64,000 bases of DNA from a virus. The notes under the pieces were generated by a model that saw only the letters and a list, made by a program, of their open reading frames with translations, was not told the DNA's origin and made no database searches. Every line of letters begins with the position of its first letter. Position 1 is the first letter of the stretch. The translations under genes and the position numbers were made by a program. The stretch spans positions 49,951 to 113,950 of IMG/VR virus record IMGVR_UViG_3300042882_000881. One strand, 5' to 3'. This document shows, piece after piece, positions 4,509-60,650 of this stretch.

Positions 4509-5702
4509 TTAGTCTCCATCTAAACTTGGGGTTACGTTTTGGTTATCAATTAAATCTAAACAATCTTCACAATTTTGTAAACTTTCATCAGAATCTAATT
4601 CGTATTGGCTATACCTAAATGGTATACAGAACCCAGCATTATGCCATTTTATAAAGTATACAGCTCCTAGTAGGTTAACATTTGTTACTGGTAAGTTAGC
4701 TGCCTTATTATCGCATGAGTAGTTATATTTATGTATTGGATCAGGATGAGTAGTTCGTCTTATGTTAGGCATCATTGTTTGGTGCCATAAGATTAGATCT
4801 GCATAATAATCATTAACTGCTACTGTATTCAAAAAGCTTGTGTATTGAGCATTTGTAACCAGTGTGGGCCTCATGTTAAATCCAACATTAACGTAGCCAT
4901 TTCCATAATTATCTGGTTGTATTCGTGGAACCTGAATAAAATCTTCTTCTTCACAAGGCTCAGAAGCTGATGGACAATAATCCTCATATCCAGTATCTAT
5001 TATAGGATGAAGACAGAAAAAAATACCTTTATCAGGACACTGTATGCAATAGGGATGGTAGTTTGGGTGGCCTCCTTCACAAGTTGTTGATCCCCACCTA
5101 AATCCTAATCTTGGACCTCTTGTATGTAAACCATCATGCTTAGGATATATGTCAGATCCTCTACCGTGACCAAATATTGCTCCAAACTCAAAAAATGTAT
5201 CACCAGGGAATAAAGCCCATTCTTGAACTCCAACCATTCCTATATCACCAATACCATATTTTGATGCTGATGATCCAGTTTCAATATTAGCAGTTACACA
5301 AGATTGTCCAGTTGGAGTTTCTAACAATCCTCTAAATGGATTTGTTCCAGATGGACATAATGATAGTTCTTGTTCTGATGCATACGTTCTACATCCCTGA
5401 CTATCTGTGTAATAAGCCCATGTTCCCTGACCAGGATTAGCATTATAGAATTCGTCTACAGTACCACCCTCTGGGACCTCCAAAGAAGAAGCAAAATTAT
5501 TCCATTCATATATAACTTCTATAAGATTCTGATTAGGTTTTTCTACTATAGAATAACCACCATAATAAAAAGCTTTCGTCAGCGTGTTAATATCTGGTAA
5601 AAAACACACATGAGAATGTGAACATTCTATACAAGGAAATCTTTCAGCATAACCTTCATCATTCCTGGGACATCCTCCACTATCTAAGGCTGGGTTTGCC
5701 AT
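4509..5702 (-). CDS. Cys-rich structural protein
   Basis: A 397-residue protein starting MANPALDSGGCP, with many scattered cysteines, Gly/Pro/Tyr-rich loops and no membrane helices. CxxC pairs (CIECSHSHVC near residue 24, CIQCPDKG near 221, CEDCLD near the C-terminus) suggest metal or disulfide stabilisation. Segments such as FPGDTFFEFGAIFG and GYVNVGFNMRPTL look like beta-rich surface domains. Composition is close to that of the other virion-like proteins at 1-3468 and 53879-58898. No family was recognised; a virion surface role is inferred. Confidence 0.7.
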   Translation of the reverse strand: MANPALDSGGCPRNDEGYAERFPCIECSHSHVCFLPDINTLTKAFYYGGYSIVEKPNQNLIEVIYEWNNFASSLEVPEGGTVDEFYNANPGQGTWAYYTDSQGCRTYASEQELSLCPSGTNPFRGLLETPTGQSCVTANIETGSSASKYGIGDIGMVGVQEWALFPGDTFFEFGAIFGHGRGSDIYPKHDGLHTRGPRLGFRWGSTTCEGGHPNYHPYCIQCPDKGIFFCLHPIIDTGYEDYCPSASEPCEEEDFIQVPRIQPDNYGNGYVNVGFNMRPTLVTNAQYTSFLNTVAVNDYYADLILWHQTMMPNIRRTTHPDPIHKYNYSCDNKAANLPVTNVNLLGAVYFIKWHNAGFCIPFRYSQYELDSDESLQNCEDCLDLIDNQNVTPSLDGD

Positions 5703-35791: not shown

Positions 35792-36029
35792 TTTCAACCT
35801 TTTGTTCTGTAAAAGCTTTTTTAACTGTTGATCTACCTTTGATATATTTGTATAAGATAAATAACTGTCCACCAATTAATATACACGATTCAACACCATG
35901 ACTAACATCTCTTATAAGATCTTCTTTTTGACCATTTTCCCCTATTATTCCCACCAAATACAGACCGCTGAATATAAAACTTACAAATGTAAACCAAAAT
36001 TCACTAGTTCTATACCCTGGTTTTATCAT
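35700..36029 (-). CDS. Two-helix membrane protein, holin-like layout
   Basis: A 109-residue protein started at MIKPGYRTSEFW (ATGA overlap with the upstream stop and GGAGG 6 nt before; the frame also reaches a TTG at 36035). Two membrane helices (FWFTFVSFIFSGLYLVGII and CILIGGQLFILYKYI) are followed by a very basic tail (KSRSRKTSKSNKRVNTKRPK). Size and topology resemble phage holins, but no family match was recognised. It lies directly after the tail-fibre-like gene, a usual place for lysis genes. Confidence 0.65.
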   Translation of the reverse strand: MIKPGYRTSEFWFTFVSFIFSGLYLVGIIGENGQKEDLIRDVSHGVESCILIGGQLFILYKYIKGRSTVKKAFTEQKVENEPAVTKSRSRKTSKSNKRVNTKRPKNSPK

Positions 36030-38164
36030 GGACAACCTCCGGCTGTTGGAGCCTCATTTATATTGTCAGGACAGCAGTACCAGCCTTCGAAAGTGAGTTT
36101 TCCAGACGGACACTCTGTTGGCTCAGCCCCCCATGAAACTTTAAGAACATTTCCATTGGCAGCATCTCTCCAAAGTCTACCAGGAACTAGAGGGTCTATA
36201 CTAGGAACGGTGGTAAAATCGATATCATTAATATTAAAACTATATGGTTCCCATAATTCAGTAGTAAAATTATATCTTAATAATTGTTTATCCGTGACTC
36301 CAGTAACAGATACATTATGTAGTTCTTCTAATTCGTACCCATTTTGAACTCTAACTTCAACGACGCCTGCATTTTGATGTGTTCTTACTATAACGCCCAT
36401 AGCAACCATATGATTTGGTGCTGAAGGCTTTGTGGTTGTAAATCCTCCAGCAACACTGGGACTTAACCATAGTGTTGTACCATTAACATTTCCTGTTGGT
36501 GCGGTAGGATTAAATTGATCTGTATTTATCCCGGTTAAGGCTCCAAATACAATAACTTTTCCTGTGCTCATATGATTAATTGCTTCTGCTGTTATTCCAT
36601 AAGTTTTACTACTGGTTGATTCTGTATTAGCTTGTGCTAAGCTAATTGTGGGAGTATCTCCTTGTCCACCGTTAACATATATAGCAGTAAATTTAGGAAT
36701 AATACTTCCAGTTTGATTAAAAACAGTAGTAATAACAGATGCTGACTCTTGAACAGCGGTTGGGCCATCTAGCGTAAAGGCCCCATTCACCTCTGTAACA
36801 GTTATATTGCTTCCCTGAATAATATCATTAACAGGATAAGGAATATTTGGTATATCTCTACCATCAAGATTTAGTCTATATCCAGAACCAACATTGGTCC
36901 AATAGGTTGTGTCTGTAACGGGCAAGCTCTCATTATCAAAATTAGCCTTATATAAAGTACCAGCATGATAAACAACATCATTGGCTAAATACCTAGTACC
37001 ATCAGCAAGAGTATGATTAGCTGTCCACTGAAGAGCAGTATTAACAGACGCTGTGCTTTGCGTTGTATTATTTGGAAATGTTAAGGTGCCGTCTACACCA
37101 AAAGTCCAGTGATTATTATTTGAGTCGGTACCAATAACAACGTTCCCACCATCTTTTTCGATCTTAACGTACTGATCATCATCTCCTAAATAAATATCAA
37201 CATTTTCTGGATCTCCTGCCACAAGATGCACATGACTATGTTCTGAATTTGATATATCGTTATTCGTCACAGTAACATATTGACCAATGGGCATAGCATT
37301 TTCTTCAAAGTTATAATATAATGCTGGATCATTTTCTGTCTCTATATTAGTTGATCTTGTTCCATCAACACTTGTTATTGTTAAAGTAAATTCAGTAATC
37401 TGACTATCGACTGGTATAGTCCAAGTAATAGTTTCTGTGTCTGGACCAGATGTGCTTACAAAAGTTAATTTACCGGTTAATGGTCGTCCCAATGATTGTT
37501 CTGTTACTCCACTGCCAGTAATAGTATAGTTTACTGTTCCAAAATAAGCCCAAGTTTGAAGAGTTACAGAAATTGTAATAGGACTACCATAGACTATAAA
37601 ATCACTAGAGTTTATACTCCAAATAGCGGCAGTTGGTCGAATGACTAAACTTTGTCCAGCGGCTGCTGTTGGAGGCATTAAAGATATTGTATTATTTGTT
37701 TCGCTTAGTATGCTACCATTGGGTAATGTTAGTTCACCATCTGTATTAAAAGTCCACTGATATGTGTATGTGTCGCTATTGGATTCTATTCTAACTTCAC
37801 TTGCGGCCATAATAACAACATCATCACCAAGTGCTTCAAGCCATAGATCGTCTGCGGCAGAGATGCCAATGTCAGCATCTTGTTCACCATCAGTTCTAGT
37901 AGTCTTAATTTGAAAATCATCATCCACTGCACCCCATAGAGTTTTAGTTCCTTCTATTACTGGGAATGAAGTCATACCATCGCTGCCAAGTACCACTTGA
38001 TATTCACCATTGACCAATCGATCATTAATAATGGATTTCAGTTCAGATAGTGATATCTTTTTAGTAATCCCACCACTCGAAGGACTGTCCATAAAAATGA
38101 AAACATCATCATTACTTAAGTTGCCACTACCTTCTGGTAATTCATTAATTCTAATTATAGCCAT
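36026..38164 (-). CDS. Tail-fibre-like protein
   Basis: A 712-residue protein. It starts with a typical fibre attachment segment (IRINELPEGSGNLSNDDVFI then KKISLSELKSII). Beta-rich repeats follow, with WTFNTDGELTLPNGS (about 135) and WTFGVDGTLTFPNNT (about 355), a motif of marine phage tail fibres, and ISAADDLWLEALGDDVVIMA. A carbohydrate-binding-type GTLYKANFDNESLPVTDTTY segment is present near 400. The C-terminus is Cys-rich (GWYCCPDNINEAPTAGGCP). It is expected to contact the host surface. Confidence 0.82.
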   Translation of the reverse strand: MAIIRINELPEGSGNLSNDDVFIFMDSPSSGGITKKISLSELKSIINDRLVNGEYQVVLGSDGMTSFPVIEGTKTLWGAVDDDFQIKTTRTDGEQDADIGISAADDLWLEALGDDVVIMAASEVRIESNSDTYTYQWTFNTDGELTLPNGSILSETNNTISLMPPTAAAGQSLVIRPTAAIWSINSSDFIVYGSPITISVTLQTWAYFGTVNYTITGSGVTEQSLGRPLTGKLTFVSTSGPDTETITWTIPVDSQITEFTLTITSVDGTRSTNIETENDPALYYNFEENAMPIGQYVTVTNNDISNSEHSHVHLVAGDPENVDIYLGDDDQYVKIEKDGGNVVIGTDSNNNHWTFGVDGTLTFPNNTTQSTASVNTALQWTANHTLADGTRYLANDVVYHAGTLYKANFDNESLPVTDTTYWTNVGSGYRLNLDGRDIPNIPYPVNDIIQGSNITVTEVNGAFTLDGPTAVQESASVITTVFNQTGSIIPKFTAIYVNGGQGDTPTISLAQANTESTSSKTYGITAEAINHMSTGKVIVFGALTGINTDQFNPTAPTGNVNGTTLWLSPSVAGGFTTTKPSAPNHMVAMGVIVRTHQNAGVVEVRVQNGYELEELHNVSVTGVTDKQLLRYNFTTELWEPYSFNINDIDFTTVPSIDPLVPGRLWRDAANGNVLKVSWGAEPTECPSGKLTFEGWYCCPDNINEAPTAGGCP

Positions 38165-53878: not shown

Positions 53879-55945
53879 TTATCCAGGGAAAACATATGCT
53901 CCGTTGCATGTGTCTGAACAATAGTTATTATAGCCATACCAAATTCCTCCGCCACCCTCACATTGCATTTTTGCTGTCATATCAGCATCCCACAATATTA
54001 CACAATTGCCATTATTTTGGCCACCTATTATACCAACACAACATCCACCCCATTTACCAGTACCGGTATTAGTATTAACTACTGGTTTATCTGATATTAC
54101 TTGTGTTGTTATGCAACTGCTATCACTACATACAGTATTATAACCATTCCAAGTGCCACCATAACCATAACATACATCTTCTGCCTTTTGATATGGAGTA
54201 TCATTTAAAACTACACATGCTTCTCTATATGGACTATCTTCATAACAACAAGCTCCAGCAGTTTGCTTAGGAATATCTAAACTATCACAAACAGCATCAT
54301 GGCAAGATTTATTTGGTGTGAAAACAGTATCTGGACCCACACATTGATCACTTGTTGTTTGTTGACATACTATTCTAGATTCAATATTTCCCTTATAGAA
54401 TACTGGTTCATAAGTTCTTATGCCTTGAGCTTTGGTAACATCTTGAGTAGAAATATCAATTTTGAAATTATAAAATACTGTTTTAGGATTCCAAGATACA
54501 TCAAAAGATGTATTTTGTGGTAAATAACTACCAGTATCATAAGAATTTGTTCCTAAGAAAAGAGAAACATCAAGAATATCTACTACTCCGTCATAATTAA
54601 AGTCTCCCTCAAACCAATGAGCAAATTCACCATTATCATATTTATTTGAAGCTAATATATCAGAAACGTCTAATATATCAATTACTCCGTCTAAATTAGT
54701 ATCTCCTGGTGCTGCCCAAGCAACAGTTGTAGAGCCATCATCATTAAATTTATAGCCAATGCTCTTTATTCCGTTAACATCAATGTCTGTTACAAATCCA
54801 ACATCACCATCCCATGATCCACCATTTCTGCCACTGATTAATAAATTTCTAAGATCAGCTGAATTAATACCATTTTGAGCAATATTTATACGACCATATC
54901 CAATATTTATTTTACCATATAGATTAAGATCAGTATTATTTGATGTATATGAGAAACCGCTATTTCCACCGTCTCTTACATCACTACCAAAATCAATACT
55001 ATTAACACTGATTGTAGAATTTCCAAGAATACCAAATCCACATGTGAAAAGTTTACCAAATGTTATTTTGGTATCTGTGGAAGTAAAACCTGTTTCAACG
55101 CCTGGTTTTAGTATACAATTACCTTCTTGAATATTTAAAACTTTACATATTGGAGGTAATACTGGAGGATTTGATACTGGAGGAGGAATTATAACTACAG
55201 TACCAGGACCAGTTTTAGTAATTCTTGGATCTAATTGACATGTTTTTACTTCTCCTTCTCCAACATATATCACAGTTGTTTCTTGATCTGGATTATTATC
55301 GTCTCTTTCTACAACTGGACAACATTGATCTGGAACGCAGTTTCTAACTGAAACATCTATGTAATGAGTATCTATTGATGTTCCGGGAGGAAATAGTGAT
55401 CCTCCATCATCACAGGTTACGCATGGGAATGAGTCTCTTTCTACGCAGTTTCCATTGATACAATCTTCACATTCTTCACAAGCAGGATCACACTCATTAT
55501 CATCTCTTGGTACAACTGGACAACAACCACCCTCTGTAGAAACCTGTGCTGTAATATCAATATAAAAATCATCAATTGAATTATCTCCTAACCCACAATT
55601 AACACATGGATATAGTTGTGGGTTTGGTGGTTTAGGAAGAACAGGACAGCACTCAGCATCACCAGCAGCATCTATTGCTACTTGAGCATTTGTGTTTACA
55701 TAATGTGTTTCAGCATTGGTTCCCGGAGTAAAACCACAATTAAAACAATTTTTTGTTCTTGGTAATGTTGGACAACAAGAATTTTCAGCATCTCTTCTAA
55801 CAAGAACAGAGGTATCTTGATAATGAGTGTCTATATTTGTTCCTGGTGGAAATGCACATGCTTCACAAGGAATCATATCTCCACCAGATCCAGAGCCTGA
55901 ACCTTCAGTATATGAGAATGTTTTTGGAAAAATATATTCAGACAT
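53879..55945 (-). CDS. Cys-rich virion protein with planctomycete-type dockerin
   Basis: A 688-residue protein. Residues 26-216 hold four repeats of a CxxC...PGTxIDTHY...CCPxxPRxxN module. Residues 341-475 resemble the C-terminal part of large planctomycete secreted proteins: GKINIGYGRINIAQNGI, SGRNGGSWDGDVGFVTD, then a type I dockerin-like pair GDTNLDGVIDILDVSDIL and GDFNYDGVVDILDVSLFL with Ca-binding DxNxDG loops. Residues 563-680 hold two GxCC modules with GGTWNGYN/GGGIWYGYN. No membrane helix or signal. A virion surface role is inferred; the dockerin is the main clue to a Planctomycetota host or donor. Confidence 0.8.
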   Translation of the reverse strand: MSEYIFPKTFSYTEGSGSGSGGDMIPCEACAFPPGTNIDTHYQDTSVLVRRDAENSCCPTLPRTKNCFNCGFTPGTNAETHYVNTNAQVAIDAAGDAECCPVLPKPPNPQLYPCVNCGLGDNSIDDFYIDITAQVSTEGGCCPVVPRDDNECDPACEECEDCINGNCVERDSFPCVTCDDGGSLFPPGTSIDTHYIDVSVRNCVPDQCCPVVERDDNNPDQETTVIYVGEGEVKTCQLDPRITKTGPGTVVIIPPPVSNPPVLPPICKVLNIQEGNCILKPGVETGFTSTDTKITFGKLFTCGFGILGNSTISVNSIDFGSDVRDGGNSGFSYTSNNTDLNLYGKINIGYGRINIAQNGINSADLRNLLISGRNGGSWDGDVGFVTDIDVNGIKSIGYKFNDDGSTTVAWAAPGDTNLDGVIDILDVSDILASNKYDNGEFAHWFEGDFNYDGVVDILDVSLFLGTNSYDTGSYLPQNTSFDVSWNPKTVFYNFKIDISTQDVTKAQGIRTYEPVFYKGNIESRIVCQQTTSDQCVGPDTVFTPNKSCHDAVCDSLDIPKQTAGACCYEDSPYREACVVLNDTPYQKAEDVCYGYGGTWNGYNTVCSDSSCITTQVISDKPVVNTNTGTGKWGGCCVGIIGGQNNGNCVILWDADMTAKMQCEGGGGIWYGYNNYCSDTCNGAYVFPG
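53906..54259 (-). repeat. Two GxCC/GG-x-W Cys modules
   Basis: Residues 563-611 and 633-680 of the dockerin protein: GACC...C...C...GGTWNGYNTVC and GGCC...C...C...GGGIWYGYNNYC. Spacing of Cys and Gly-Trp-Gly-Tyr is the same in both. Similar GxCC modules recur in the gene upstream (55959-58154). Confidence 0.7.
54521..54925 (-). other. Planctomycete-type domain with dockerin-like Ca-binding repeats
   Basis: Codes residues 341-475 of the dockerin protein: a beta segment ending in GYKFNDDGSTTVAWAAPGD, then two EF-hand-like DxNxDGxxDxxD loops 34 residues apart with EGDFNYDGVVD as the second. The order and the AAPGDTNLDG...EGDFNYDG wording are those seen in Planctomycetota surface proteins. Confidence 0.75.
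55298..55870 (-). repeat. Four tandem CxxC/CCP modules
   Basis: Protein repeats at residues 26-66, 66-110, 113-150 and 174-216. Each has a CxxC start, a PGTxxxTHYxxTxxxV-like centre and CCPxxPR/K at the end. Repeat 3 is shortened (GDNSIDDFY), and a non-repeat Cys cluster (CEECEDCINGNC) separates 3 from 4. Confidence 0.85.
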
Positions 55946-55958
55946 TATTAGCCTCTCT

Positions 55959-58154
55959 TTATTGTTTATCTACTGATAATATTATACAATTACCTTCAAT
56001 CTTATTAACTGTTGTTTTCCAATCTGAAGTTGCCTGACCATTATTCATAACCGAAAAGTCAGATTCTATTTTTGAATTATCATAACTTACGCTATTCATA
56101 TAATTATCAAATACTGTTGGATTATTAAAACATAATTTAACAATACTTCCATCATTTAACATAGTAAAGTTAACATCAGAAGAAGATACAACTGATCCTG
56201 TATTACTACGATATGCTGGTATGGTTACGGTCTTAGTGTGAATGACAGAATTTGTTAAAATTAATGGATCAATAGTTTTTGTAGCAACAATAGAACAGCA
56301 GGCTCCGTTTACTACTCCGGGATTATCTGAACCAATTGTTGGATTTGTCTGTTCGTATATTGAACAATCTCTTGGACCAATAAAAATAGTGGTAACTGTT
56401 GAATCATCTAATGGAACGCACTGTATACCACCAGATGAACACGATGGAGGATTATATCCGCCAAGTCCGTCTGGTTGTGCTGGTTGCCAGAAGCCTTCAA
56501 GATTGCTACACTCAGATTGAGTATTAACTTTGCAACCCCATACTTCTGGATCTGTTTCTGTTATATAACAGCAAGTTCCCAAAGCAGATGGATATGATCT
56601 TGGAATATCAAATTGACAATTTGCTTCTGAACAATCAACACCAGTAGTAAAATAACTTTCTACAATTACAACTTTATTTTCTGGATTTGTCAATAAGTCT
56701 TCATTTAATCTATCAATTGTGCAACCTTCAGAAGTCATATCTGATAAGCAACCAATTCTGTAAACAGATTTGGCATCAACACTCATAAAACAACAAGTTC
56801 CAGTGCCAATATCGTTAGCAAACTTTTTCTGATATTCAAGTTTTAATCTAGAAAATTCTGTAGGATTGGTTTCTGATAGAAATTTCGCAGTATTTGGAAT
56901 GTACCTAACAATGATCTGTTCTGGTATAAGTACTTCTGGTTCACGATCAACAATGATTTCAATTAATTGACCAGTATTCGTATCAAATAAGATCACAAGA
57001 TTCTTATTACTAACCGGTGGGGCCGGATTAGCAATTGTTGGTGCTGGGGTTATATAGATATATTTTCTTATTATGTTTGATTGATCATTCTGAAAAGAGT
57101 TTGTATCTCTTACTAGTTTATAATCATTATCTAGTTTCCAAGTTTCTAAAAATACTTTATATATATTAGCATCAGGTATTCCTTGACTATTTGTATATGT
57201 TGGTTGTCCAGTAGCAGGGTCGATACCGCCTTCTATATATCCATAGAATAAGACAACAGCATTTTTATATTTTTCATCAAACTGTGGATGACTTTTATTA
57301 ATATCTACCCATTTTTGATATACTGAGATAAATTCTTTTGCTGGACCATATGAATTTACTGCTATTGGTCTATTCTTTACATTAGCATCATCTAATTCAT
57401 ACAATACATTGCAATGTAAATCACCATTAGGAGGAGGGTTCATTAAACAGCTGGCACATAAACCGGGAGATGTTTTTGAATGCTTGCAAGTGACACTGCT
57501 TGAGCTTGTTGTTATTCCTGTATTAGTCAACTCTAAAGAAAGAAATGGACCTTGAAACCATGGCATTTTACCATGTTGAGGACATCCAGTATTTCCTGGC
57601 ATATCTATACATCTATCTTCATCTGGATATGCTGGCATACTACCAATATTTGTAGGATTAGAACTCAATAGTCTTTTCCATGTTGTTGCATTCCTACCAT
57701 TTAATAAATAATCTTTACCTTGATAAGTTATTTTTTCAGGCAAAGCAACTGTTGGAACACCAATTTTTAATTTTCCACCATTTAATTCTACATATTGTTT
57801 TAACTGTAAATACGCTACTGGATCATCAACTATTTCTGGAAATATTTTGGTAGGATTATTCTCTAACCATGTTTTGATAAAAGGAAGTGTTGGACAATCT
57901 CCACATTTTGGAACTTCATCAAATGCCAATAGTCTTATTATAACGTCTCCACTCTCCCATGCTGATAATCTCCAATCGTGATATAGTTGACTATTGCTGT
58001 AGTCACCAATATTACCTACTGGGCTAACAGGAGGAGCACCAAGAAATTGAAAGCAATTATACCAAATACACTTGGTAATATAATCTCCAACCATACATTC
58101 GCCGTCTACTGGTGGATATCTATTGTCGATTAGTAAAGGATCTAATTGGCCCAT
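55959..58154 (-). CDS. Large Cys-rich virion protein
   Basis: A 731-residue protein. N-terminal Cys-poor part with DWRLSAWESGDVIIRLLAFD; the middle has CPQHGKMPWF and CKHSKTSPGLCASC; residues about 450-640 hold GxCC modules (GTCCFMSV, GTCCYITE...GFWQPAQPDG, GACCSIVA) of the same type as in the neighbour. No membrane helix. It is 13 bp upstream of the dockerin protein gene and 24 bp downstream of the next Cys-rich gene, all under one late-type promoter. A virion or tail-surface role is inferred. Confidence 0.75.
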   Translation of the reverse strand: MGQLDPLLIDNRYPPVDGECMVGDYITKCIWYNCFQFLGAPPVSPVGNIGDYSNSQLYHDWRLSAWESGDVIIRLLAFDEVPKCGDCPTLPFIKTWLENNPTKIFPEIVDDPVAYLQLKQYVELNGGKLKIGVPTVALPEKITYQGKDYLLNGRNATTWKRLLSSNPTNIGSMPAYPDEDRCIDMPGNTGCPQHGKMPWFQGPFLSLELTNTGITTSSSSVTCKHSKTSPGLCASCLMNPPPNGDLHCNVLYELDDANVKNRPIAVNSYGPAKEFISVYQKWVDINKSHPQFDEKYKNAVVLFYGYIEGGIDPATGQPTYTNSQGIPDANIYKVFLETWKLDNDYKLVRDTNSFQNDQSNIIRKYIYITPAPTIANPAPPVSNKNLVILFDTNTGQLIEIIVDREPEVLIPEQIIVRYIPNTAKFLSETNPTEFSRLKLEYQKKFANDIGTGTCCFMSVDAKSVYRIGCLSDMTSEGCTIDRLNEDLLTNPENKVVIVESYFTTGVDCSEANCQFDIPRSYPSALGTCCYITETDPEVWGCKVNTQSECSNLEGFWQPAQPDGLGGYNPPSCSSGGIQCVPLDDSTVTTIFIGPRDCSIYEQTNPTIGSDNPGVVNGACCSIVATKTIDPLILTNSVIHTKTVTIPAYRSNTGSVVSSSDVNFTMLNDGSIVKLCFNNPTVFDNYMNSVSYDNSKIESDFSVMNNGQATSDWKTTVNKIEGNCIILSVDKQ

Positions 58155-58178: not shown

Positions 58179-58898
58179 TTAGAATAATCCGCCAGCGGCT
58201 TTGCAGTTATATTCAACTTCAGCTTCTCTCCATGCTTGTAAAAGCTCAGTGATTCCACCACATACACCATATAAATTAGGACCACATCCAGCACCAGGAC
58301 ATCCACAAGCACAAGCTTCTTGAGGATCTCCACCAGTTGATATATATGGTTGTGGCATAGCTTGTAATAACTCTTTAATGTCTTTTGAAACTTCTGGTAC
58401 ATAAACAGTATAAGTTACAGATTGGCCGAACTCATCGACATCTCCGCAACAACACTCTGTTCCATTAACAGAAAGTTTGCTATCAAAACTACCACAACCA
58501 TTTTTGCAACATTCATTACTAACTGAAAATGTGGTAAGAATAAGTGGTCTTGGTTCTGGAGAAGCATTTACATATGTTGTGAATAACCATTGTTGATTTC
58601 CAGTATAACGCATAACAGAACCATCTTTATTACATCTATCCAAACATGGATCACAAAATACTTGAGTATATTTACCGGTAGTTGATTTATTAAGTCCACA
58701 GATATCCCAATATGTTATACTGGGATCCCAATAAGGACGTCCTGGTGGACAAATACCAATTCCTCCATTCTCAAAAAAAACAGCATATGTTCCAGGTTCT
58801 GAACAACAGGTTATATTAGTTTGCCATGGACATGTGAATCCAAAACTGTTTCCACTAATAGTTATATCTAATGATCCTTCTACGAGAATATTACACAT
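58179..58898 (-). CDS. Cys-rich virion protein
   Basis: A 239-residue protein, MCNILVEGSLDITISGNSFG at the start, with CC pairs (ITCCSEPG, ECCKNGCGSF, ECCCGDVDE) and a C-terminal CACGCPGAGCG. Beta-rich middle (QWLFTTYVNASPEPRPLILT). It is the first gene of the Cys-rich operon, 30 nt behind late-type motif 4. Function inferred as structural. Confidence 0.72.
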   Translation of the reverse strand: MCNILVEGSLDITISGNSFGFTCPWQTNITCCSEPGTYAVFFENGGIGICPPGRPYWDPSITYWDICGLNKSTTGKYTQVFCDPCLDRCNKDGSVMRYTGNQQWLFTTYVNASPEPRPLILTTFSVSNECCKNGCGSFDSKLSVNGTECCCGDVDEFGQSVTYTVYVPEVSKDIKELLQAMPQPYISTGGDPQEACACGCPGAGCGPNLYGVCGGITELLQAWREAEVEYNCKAAGGLF

Positions 58899-59741: not shown

Positions 59742-59753
59742 ATATTATACACT
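59742..59753 (-). promoter_or_regulatory. Putative late promoter motif 5
   Basis: Minus strand AGTGTATAATAT, 26 nt before the ATG at 59715. It overlaps the last codons of ruvB (stop at 59745). It shares GTGTATNAT with motifs 1 and 4. Confidence 0.55.
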
Positions 59754-60650
59754 AATATTAGACTGTAGATTGAATATTCTACCCTTCTGAGTTCTTATCA
59801 CATAACCCATTCGTACCATAAATGGCTCAATACTATTTTCGATAGTTTCAATAGCAATGCCTGTCATTGATGAGATACTTTTTAGGCCAATAGGGTTAGT
59901 TTTAGCATTAATAAGAACTTGCAAATACATTCTATCATAAATATCAAAACCATATTGGTCAATACCCTGAGCATTAAAGATATCGTCAATATTTGTCTCT
60001 TTATCACTTGACAAAATATAGTTTTTATACCATTGCAATCTTGCATTTAATATTCTTGGTGTTCCTTTACTTCTTTTGGCGATTTCCAAAAGACCCTCAT
60101 CGTCTATGACTATGTTAAGTTTAGCAGAATTCGACCTTGCTAGTTCAGCTAATTCATCGTGATCATAATAGACCAAATGTTCTTTGAGAGTGAACCTGTC
60201 GTAAAACGGCTGACTTAAACTACCACCACTAGTGGTTGCTCCAACAAGAGTAAATTGTGGAAGATCAATAGATTCAATCTTAGAATCACTAGAAATATTA
60301 AGAACAAAGTCTTCCATAATAGGATATAGAAATTCTTCAACAATTTTAGGCAGCCTATGAATCTCGTCAATAAATAGGATTGATCTTGGAGCAATACCCA
60401 TTAGGTAAGGAAGCAAACTTTTAATACTCCTTAAATTTGCTGCATTTAATGTATATAAATTAACATTCATCTCATTTGCTATAGCACTAGCAATTGTTGT
60501 CTTGCCTAAACCCGGAGGCCCATCAAGTAAAATATGAGGCATCACACCATTAGATATTGCACATCCCTTTGTGCATATTCTAAGTCTAGACACAACACCT
60601 TTCTGCCCAATAATATCTTCAAATTTTGACGGTCTAATAATGTTATTCAT
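59745..60650 (-). CDS. ruvB: Holliday junction helicase RuvB
   Basis: A 301-residue AAA+ ATPase: RPSKFEDIIGQKGVVSRL, Walker A ILLDGPPGLGKTT (40-52), Walker B ILFIDEIHRLPKIVEEFLYP (91-110), sensor 1 TLVGATTSGGSLSQPFYDRF and the arginine-finger region SKGTPRILNARLQ. It is slightly shorter than bacterial RuvB (about 336). It drives branch migration. RuvB is rare in phages; a protein with a RuvA-like tail is encoded immediately upstream with an 8 bp overlap. Confidence 0.93.
   Translation of the reverse strand: MNNIIRPSKFEDIIGQKGVVSRLRICTKGCAISNGVMPHILLDGPPGLGKTTIASAIANEMNVNLYTLNAANLRSIKSLLPYLMGIAPRSILFIDEIHRLPKIVEEFLYPIMEDFVLNISSDSKIESIDLPQFTLVGATTSGGSLSQPFYDRFTLKEHLVYYDHDELAELARSNSAKLNIVIDDEGLLEIAKRSKGTPRILNARLQWYKNYILSSDKETNIDDIFNAQGIDQYGFDIYDRMYLQVLINAKTNPIGLKSISSMTGIAIETIENSIEPFMVRMGYVIRTQKGRIFNLQSNISV

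What the first reader, a model, noticed from the sequence alone, without database searches (positions are those of the whole stretch)
54521..54925. Planctomycetota-type dockerin segment inside a phage Cys-rich virion protein
Residues 341-475 of the 688-residue protein read like the C-terminal part of large planctomycete secreted proteins: GRINIAQNGI, SGRNGGSWDG, AAPGDTNLDGVID and EGDFNYDGVVD, with two DxNxDG calcium loops about 34 residues apart. In bacteria such loops form a dockerin that docks to cohesins or the cell surface. In a phage it would place a host-type docking module on the particle. It also points to the host lineage.
Basis: partly seen in the sequence, partly recalled or inferred. 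Interest (0 to 1): 0.85.

Follow-up and report, generated by a model that had tools for sequence, protein, structure and literature searches.

The report
Bacterial surface-protein module in phage protein
A phage from an uncultured group carries, inside one of its cysteine-rich proteins, a calcium-binding module clearly taken from the surface proteins of planctomycete bacteria, which with a second shared gene identifies the likely hosts and suggests, but does not prove, a role in gripping them.

Summary
Residues 339-488 of the 688-aa ORF (window 53879-55945, minus strand) are a cysteine-free, 150-residue module homologous to the end module of large Pirellulales-type planctomycete surface proteins. 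There it follows autotransporter-type beta-strand repeats and usually precedes PEP-CTERM. A profile built from host copies only scores it 150 bits; 76 of 77 genome hits are Planctomycetota. The second half has a dockerin fold with two complete calcium loops: its profile hits only dockerins in the PDB, and Foldseek ranks dockerins first (probability 0.99). It fails Pfam's dockerin cut-off, and no cohesin passes the cut-off in the phage or 8 host genomes, so classical cohesin docking is unsupported. Uniform phage-like GC3 argues against a chimera. The module is rare: among 232 loci fetched as relatives, only one other phage (L167/L305) has it, in a different gene at the tail-fibre locus. Independent host evidence: 10 of 35 related phage records encode DUF1501; six copies are sister to DUF1501 of four planctomycete MAGs that carry close module copies (74-79% identity). 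Whether the 688-aa protein is on the virion is not shown. Most likely it is a captured, calcium-stiffened host-surface module used as a stalk or adhesion element.

The parts
53879..55945 (-). 688-aa Cys-rich protein (42 Cys) with the module inside; no signal peptide evident, no Pfam/NCBIfam/PHROG family
54482..54931 (-). Planctomycete surface-protein end module, residues 339-488, no Cys
54668..54703 (-). Calcium loop 1, DTNLDGVIDILD, residues 415-426
   Evidence: AF2 models
54569..54604 (-). Calcium loop 2, DFNYDGVVDILD, residues 448-459
   Evidence: AF2 models
55241..55945 (-). N-terminal Cys-rich part, residues 1-235, with THY/CCP repeats (THY at 40, 80, 193; CCP at 57, 99, 141, 208)
53882..54256 (-). 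C-terminal GACC/GGCC repeats, residues 564-688; no match in 246 Planctomycetota genomes
55959..58154 (-). 731-aa Cys-rich neighbour sharing the GACC-type repeats; no homologue in any viral locus held
58179..58898 (-). 239-aa Cys-rich neighbour; 50% identical homologue at the same place in related phage L181
58960..59715 (-). Trypsin-like protease with hydrophobic leader, marks the locus in relatives
   Evidence: PF00089 E 5e-17; synteny
59745..60650 (-). RuvB/clamp-loader-like ATPase, conserved anchor gene of the locus
   Evidence: 71 viral loci with a relative
36026..38164 (-). 712-aa tail-fibre-like protein; in relative L167 the ORFs at this locus carry the second phage copy of the module

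Best explanation
Residues 339-488 are a module captured from a large secreted protein of the phage's planctomycete (Pirellulales-type) host and spliced into a disulfide-rich phage protein. It consists of a short beta/alpha cap followed by a dockerin-fold pair of calcium loops. After lysis, or on the particle, calcium folds and stiffens the module, so that it serves as a stalk or adhesion element compatible with the host's own surface layer, most likely helping the phage grip host cells. Shown: homology, fold class (predicted), intact loops, host lineage, rarity and a second copy in a relative. Inferred: extracellular or virion location, calcium binding, disulfides, adhesive use.
For: Homology at E 2e-36 with 43-52% identity; 76 of 77 hits Planctomycetota. 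Host architecture is PATR/autotrns_rpt + module, in most copies followed by PEP-CTERM. Profile hits only dockerins in the PDB, best 4.2e-5; Foldseek top 11 all dockerins, 2y3n_B probability 0.99. The phage groups inside the host clade at 88/95 support on a long branch. A second copy lies at the tail-fibre locus of a relative. Six phage DUF1501 copies are sister to those of four MAGs carrying the module, with 0 of 299 Pseudomonadota as control.
Against: No proteomic or positional proof that the 688-aa protein is structural: it lies on the minus strand, away from the main structural block. No cohesin partner found. No calcium or binding data. The module is absent from nearly all relatives, so it is not essential. 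The terminase gave no hit in 343 Planctomycetota genomes, so there is no direct virus-host co-binning.
Confidence: 0.5

Rival explanations
1. The module is a neutral structural spacer. Calcium-loop modules are abundant in host surface proteins, one was captured by chance, and it only separates the N- and C-terminal Cys-rich parts without any specific docking.
For: No cohesin partner; the module is sporadic; in hosts it sits between repeats and anchor, as a spacer would; the L167 copy has a degenerate first loop yet persists.
Against: Both loops stay complete in the window phage although many host copies have lost the Gly of loop 1; two phages of the lineage took the same module in different genes.
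Confidence: 0.3
2. The protein is not on the virion but is released or displayed in the infected cell, where a host-like module occupies the host surface and blocks superinfection or acts as a decoy.
For: Encoded near a trypsin-like protease with a leader and away from the structural block.
Against: No signal peptide is evident and no PEP-CTERM; other proteins of similar Cys-rich composition lie in the structural block.
Confidence: 0.12
3. Assembly chimera joining host and phage DNA.
For: The 688-aa gene with the module is not seen in any second record.
Against: Segment GC 0.31-0.32 and GC3 0.11-0.14 match the rest of the gene, whereas host loci are GC 0.60-0.70; the ORF is continuous; a related phage has its own copy on a contig of GC 0.34.
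Confidence: 0.02

Closest known systems
C-terminal module of PATR/PEP-CTERM surface proteins of Pirellulales-type planctomycetes (uncurated; e.g. L085, L087, L097)
   Same: Homologous over about 140-150 residues, 43-52% identity, same order of beta/alpha cap and two calcium loops
   Different: In the phage it is internal, flanked by Cys-rich repeats, without signal peptide, beta-strand repeats or PEP-CTERM; codon use is phage-like
Dockerin domains (PF00404; 2y3n_B, 5lxv_B, 2b59_B)
   Same: Two DxNxDGxxDxxD loops 33 residues apart, each followed by a helix; predicted fold matches
   Different: Below the Pfam cut-off; Ile-Leu in both loops at the positions that in type I dockerins usually hold the cohesin-contacting Ser/Thr (own knowledge); no cohesin found; preceded by an extra cap
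'Planctosome' cohesin/dockerin proteins of freshwater Nemodlikiaceae (PMC6461901)
   Same: Dockerin-type modules in freshwater planctomycete secreted proteins
   Different: A bacterial, proposed peptidase complex with cohesins, in another planctomycete class; no phage involved
Vibrio phage VvAW1 gene 40 (PMC3558961)
   Same: Phage gene reported to resemble dockerin type I
   Different: Authors report only a BLASTp resemblance near a presumed att site; not compared here

Membership tests
Dockerin (type I/II) | Two calcium-binding F-hand loops DxNxDGxxDxxD | tested here: met
   Residues 415-426 and 448-459; sequence motif only
Dockerin (type I/II) | Dockerin fold | tested here: met
   AF2 model pLDDT 86; Foldseek top 11 all dockerins, 2y3n_B probability 0.99, TM 0.65/0.74, though E only 0.09; prediction only
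Dockerin (type I/II) | Score over the Pfam PF00404 cut-off | tested here: not met
   11.5 bits against 22.9
Dockerin (type I/II) | Cohesin partner in the same system | tested here: not met
   PF00963 over the cut-off in 0 of 9 records (phage and 8 host genomes), one weak hit 5.8e-4; distant cohesins could be missed
Dockerin (type I/II) | Calcium-dependent binding | not testable with these tools
   Needs protein
Pirellulales surface-protein end module | Sequence homology over the whole module | tested here: met
   150 bits with a host-only profile
Pirellulales surface-protein end module | Position after PATR repeats and before PEP-CTERM in a secreted protein | tested here: not met
   Internal, no PATR, no PEP-CTERM; host copies show these features

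The most novel reading that the evidence does not exclude
The phage uses a captured host surface-protein module as a docking device: the module on the particle binds, in a calcium-dependent way, the same unknown envelope partner that the host's own PEP-CTERM proteins use, giving lineage-specific adsorption.
Probability: 0.25. Interest if true: 0.8.

Novelty: new variant of a known kind. Interest (0 to 1): 0.57.

Why it matters
My literature searches found almost nothing on planctomycete phages. Two independent host-derived genes now tie a widespread uncultured lineage (at least 600 matching stretches in IMG/VR, at most about 25% terminase identity to any isolate) to a defined group of freshwater Pirellulales-type bacteria. 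The module also gives a concrete, small, expressible protein with which to look for the unknown partner of planctomycete dockerin-like domains.

Tried and rejected
Whole-protein or segment searches in INPHARED, PLSDB and IMG/VR gave no homologue of the 688-aa protein. The 731-aa neighbour and the 372-aa dockerin-like ORF gave no relatives in IMG/VR. GACC repeats as a planctomycete marker: no match in 246 genomes with a three-row profile, a weak test. Terminase in 343 Planctomycetota genomes: none. Foldseek with the full 169-residue model was uninformative, so the dockerin part was folded alone. Chimera rejected on composition.

Full report
Observation. The window is bases 49951-113950 of a 113,950-base virus record. 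The 688-aa ORF lies at 53879-55945 on the minus strand. The quoted strings and loops are present, with loops starting at residues 415 and 448. Pfam, NCBIfam and PHROGs give no family for the whole protein; for the segment Pfam shows Dockerin_1 only at E 0.35, below its cut-off.

Homology. A scan of 84,980 bacterial and archaeal species genomes with residues 316-515 returned 77 loci, 76 titled as Planctomycetota and one as Pseudomonadales (L150, 43% over 54 residues, same sample series as a Phycisphaeraceae bin, so possibly a binning error). The top 37 loci (E <= 1e-20) come from about a dozen planctomycete assemblies with 36-52% identity over about 115-165 residues. The loci are not independent, since single MAGs carry a dozen or more paralogues. 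A profile made without any phage row scores the phage protein at 150 bits over residues 337-478; 5000 shuffles of the segment reach at most 16 bits. In hosts the module sits near the end of long ORFs after PATR/autotransporter beta-strand repeats and, in most of the copies read, just before a PEP-CTERM tail; in some (L086, L093) it lies mid-protein. The phage copy is internal, free of cysteine and flanked by Cys-rich parts.

Fold. The alignment profile, searched against all PDB sequences, finds five entries at E <= 0.1, all dockerins, best 4.2e-5. AlphaFold2 on 38 sequences gives pLDDT of about 97 over most of the loop-bearing half and a confident beta/alpha cap in front. The dockerin half folded alone ranks eleven dockerin structures first in Foldseek, best probability 0.99 with TM 0.74 by target, although E-values stay near 0.1 or above, probably because the domain is tiny. 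So the predicted fold is that of a dockerin, but the segment fails the Pfam cut-off and no cohesin was found over the cut-off in the phage or 8 host genomes. It should be called dockerin-like.

Origin. GC (0.31-0.32) and GC3 (0.11-0.14) of the segment equal the rest of the gene, while host loci are GC 0.60-0.70. On a tree the phage branch (1.6 changes per site) lies inside the planctomycete clade, with modest support 88/95. This fits an old, ameliorated or fast-evolving capture and speaks against an assembly chimera.

Relatives. That phage shares the class II ribonucleotide reductase gene (87%) and the lysis-region block with the window phage, and carries the module in a 275-aa ORF where the window has its 712-aa tail-fibre-like gene. 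Four other viral contigs (L084, L168, L169, L170) match only over the dockerin part. At the 688-aa locus most relatives examined keep the clamp loader and often the trypsin-like protease but lack the Cys-rich cassette; L181 keeps a 50% identical 239-aa Cys-rich gene.

Host. Independently, 10 of 35 related phage records encode DUF1501. The copy in G024 is 74-79% identical to DUF1501 of G049, G050, G052 and G053, four of the MAGs carrying the close module copies (two other genomes with module copies, G048 and G132, had only 38-41% matches), against 67% for one other planctomycete and lower in the remaining ones sampled; those four MAG loci have GC 0.66-0.69, so they are bacterial. The same query matched 130 of 199 Planctomycetota and 0 of 299 Pseudomonadota genomes. 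Six phage copies form the sister group of the four MAG copies (SH-aLRT 100 for the joint clade). The window phage itself was not found to carry DUF1501, so this evidence concerns its lineage. I put the host claim, Pirellulales-type planctomycetes, at about 0.85.

Mechanism. The simplest account is capture of a host surface module into a disulfide-rich phage protein, where it acts as a calcium-stiffened stalk or adhesion element. The steps shown are homology, predicted fold class, intact loops and lineage; the steps inferred are calcium binding, location outside the cell and adhesion. Host-specific docking to the natural partner of the module is possible but unproven; a plain spacer role is the main rival. 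Freshwater planctomycetes have been proposed to use cohesin/dockerin complexes (PMC6461901), but those are in another family and I found no cohesin here.

Noticed in passing
L001:71-1189 (record position 71-1189, outside the window): A 372-aa ORF of the same phage begins with a second dockerin-like loop pair (DVNNDG, DINNDG, 22 apart), over the PF00404 cut-off when both halves are summed.
   Followed up: partly
L332-L341 (related phage records): DUF1501, found in 130 of 199 sampled Planctomycetota, occurs in 10 of 35 related large phage records; function in phages unknown.
   Followed up: yes
L001:10716-12062 and L001:14269-15627: Two Cys-rich proteins with HExxH-type motifs (HELMH, HEIIH) flank the portal-position gene; found otherwise only in an identical overlapping contig (L004).
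   Followed up: no
L186:11192-12190; similar ORFs in other relatives: 333-aa Volactin-like actin-family protein (PF25216 E 1e-60) in related phages.
   Followed up: no
L185:3669-10400: A 2244-aa ORF at the same locus of a related phage with a weak single dockerin-like loop (E 0.0075).
   Followed up: no
L170, L168, L084: Apparently unrelated viral contigs with dockerin-type loop pairs (L168 at the end of a tail-like protein, L170 in two ORFs, weaker in L084), suggesting such loops recur in phages.
   Followed up: partly
window 4509-5702: 397-aa Cys-rich protein with a weak FGE-sulfatase match (E 0.0013, below cut-off).
   Followed up: no
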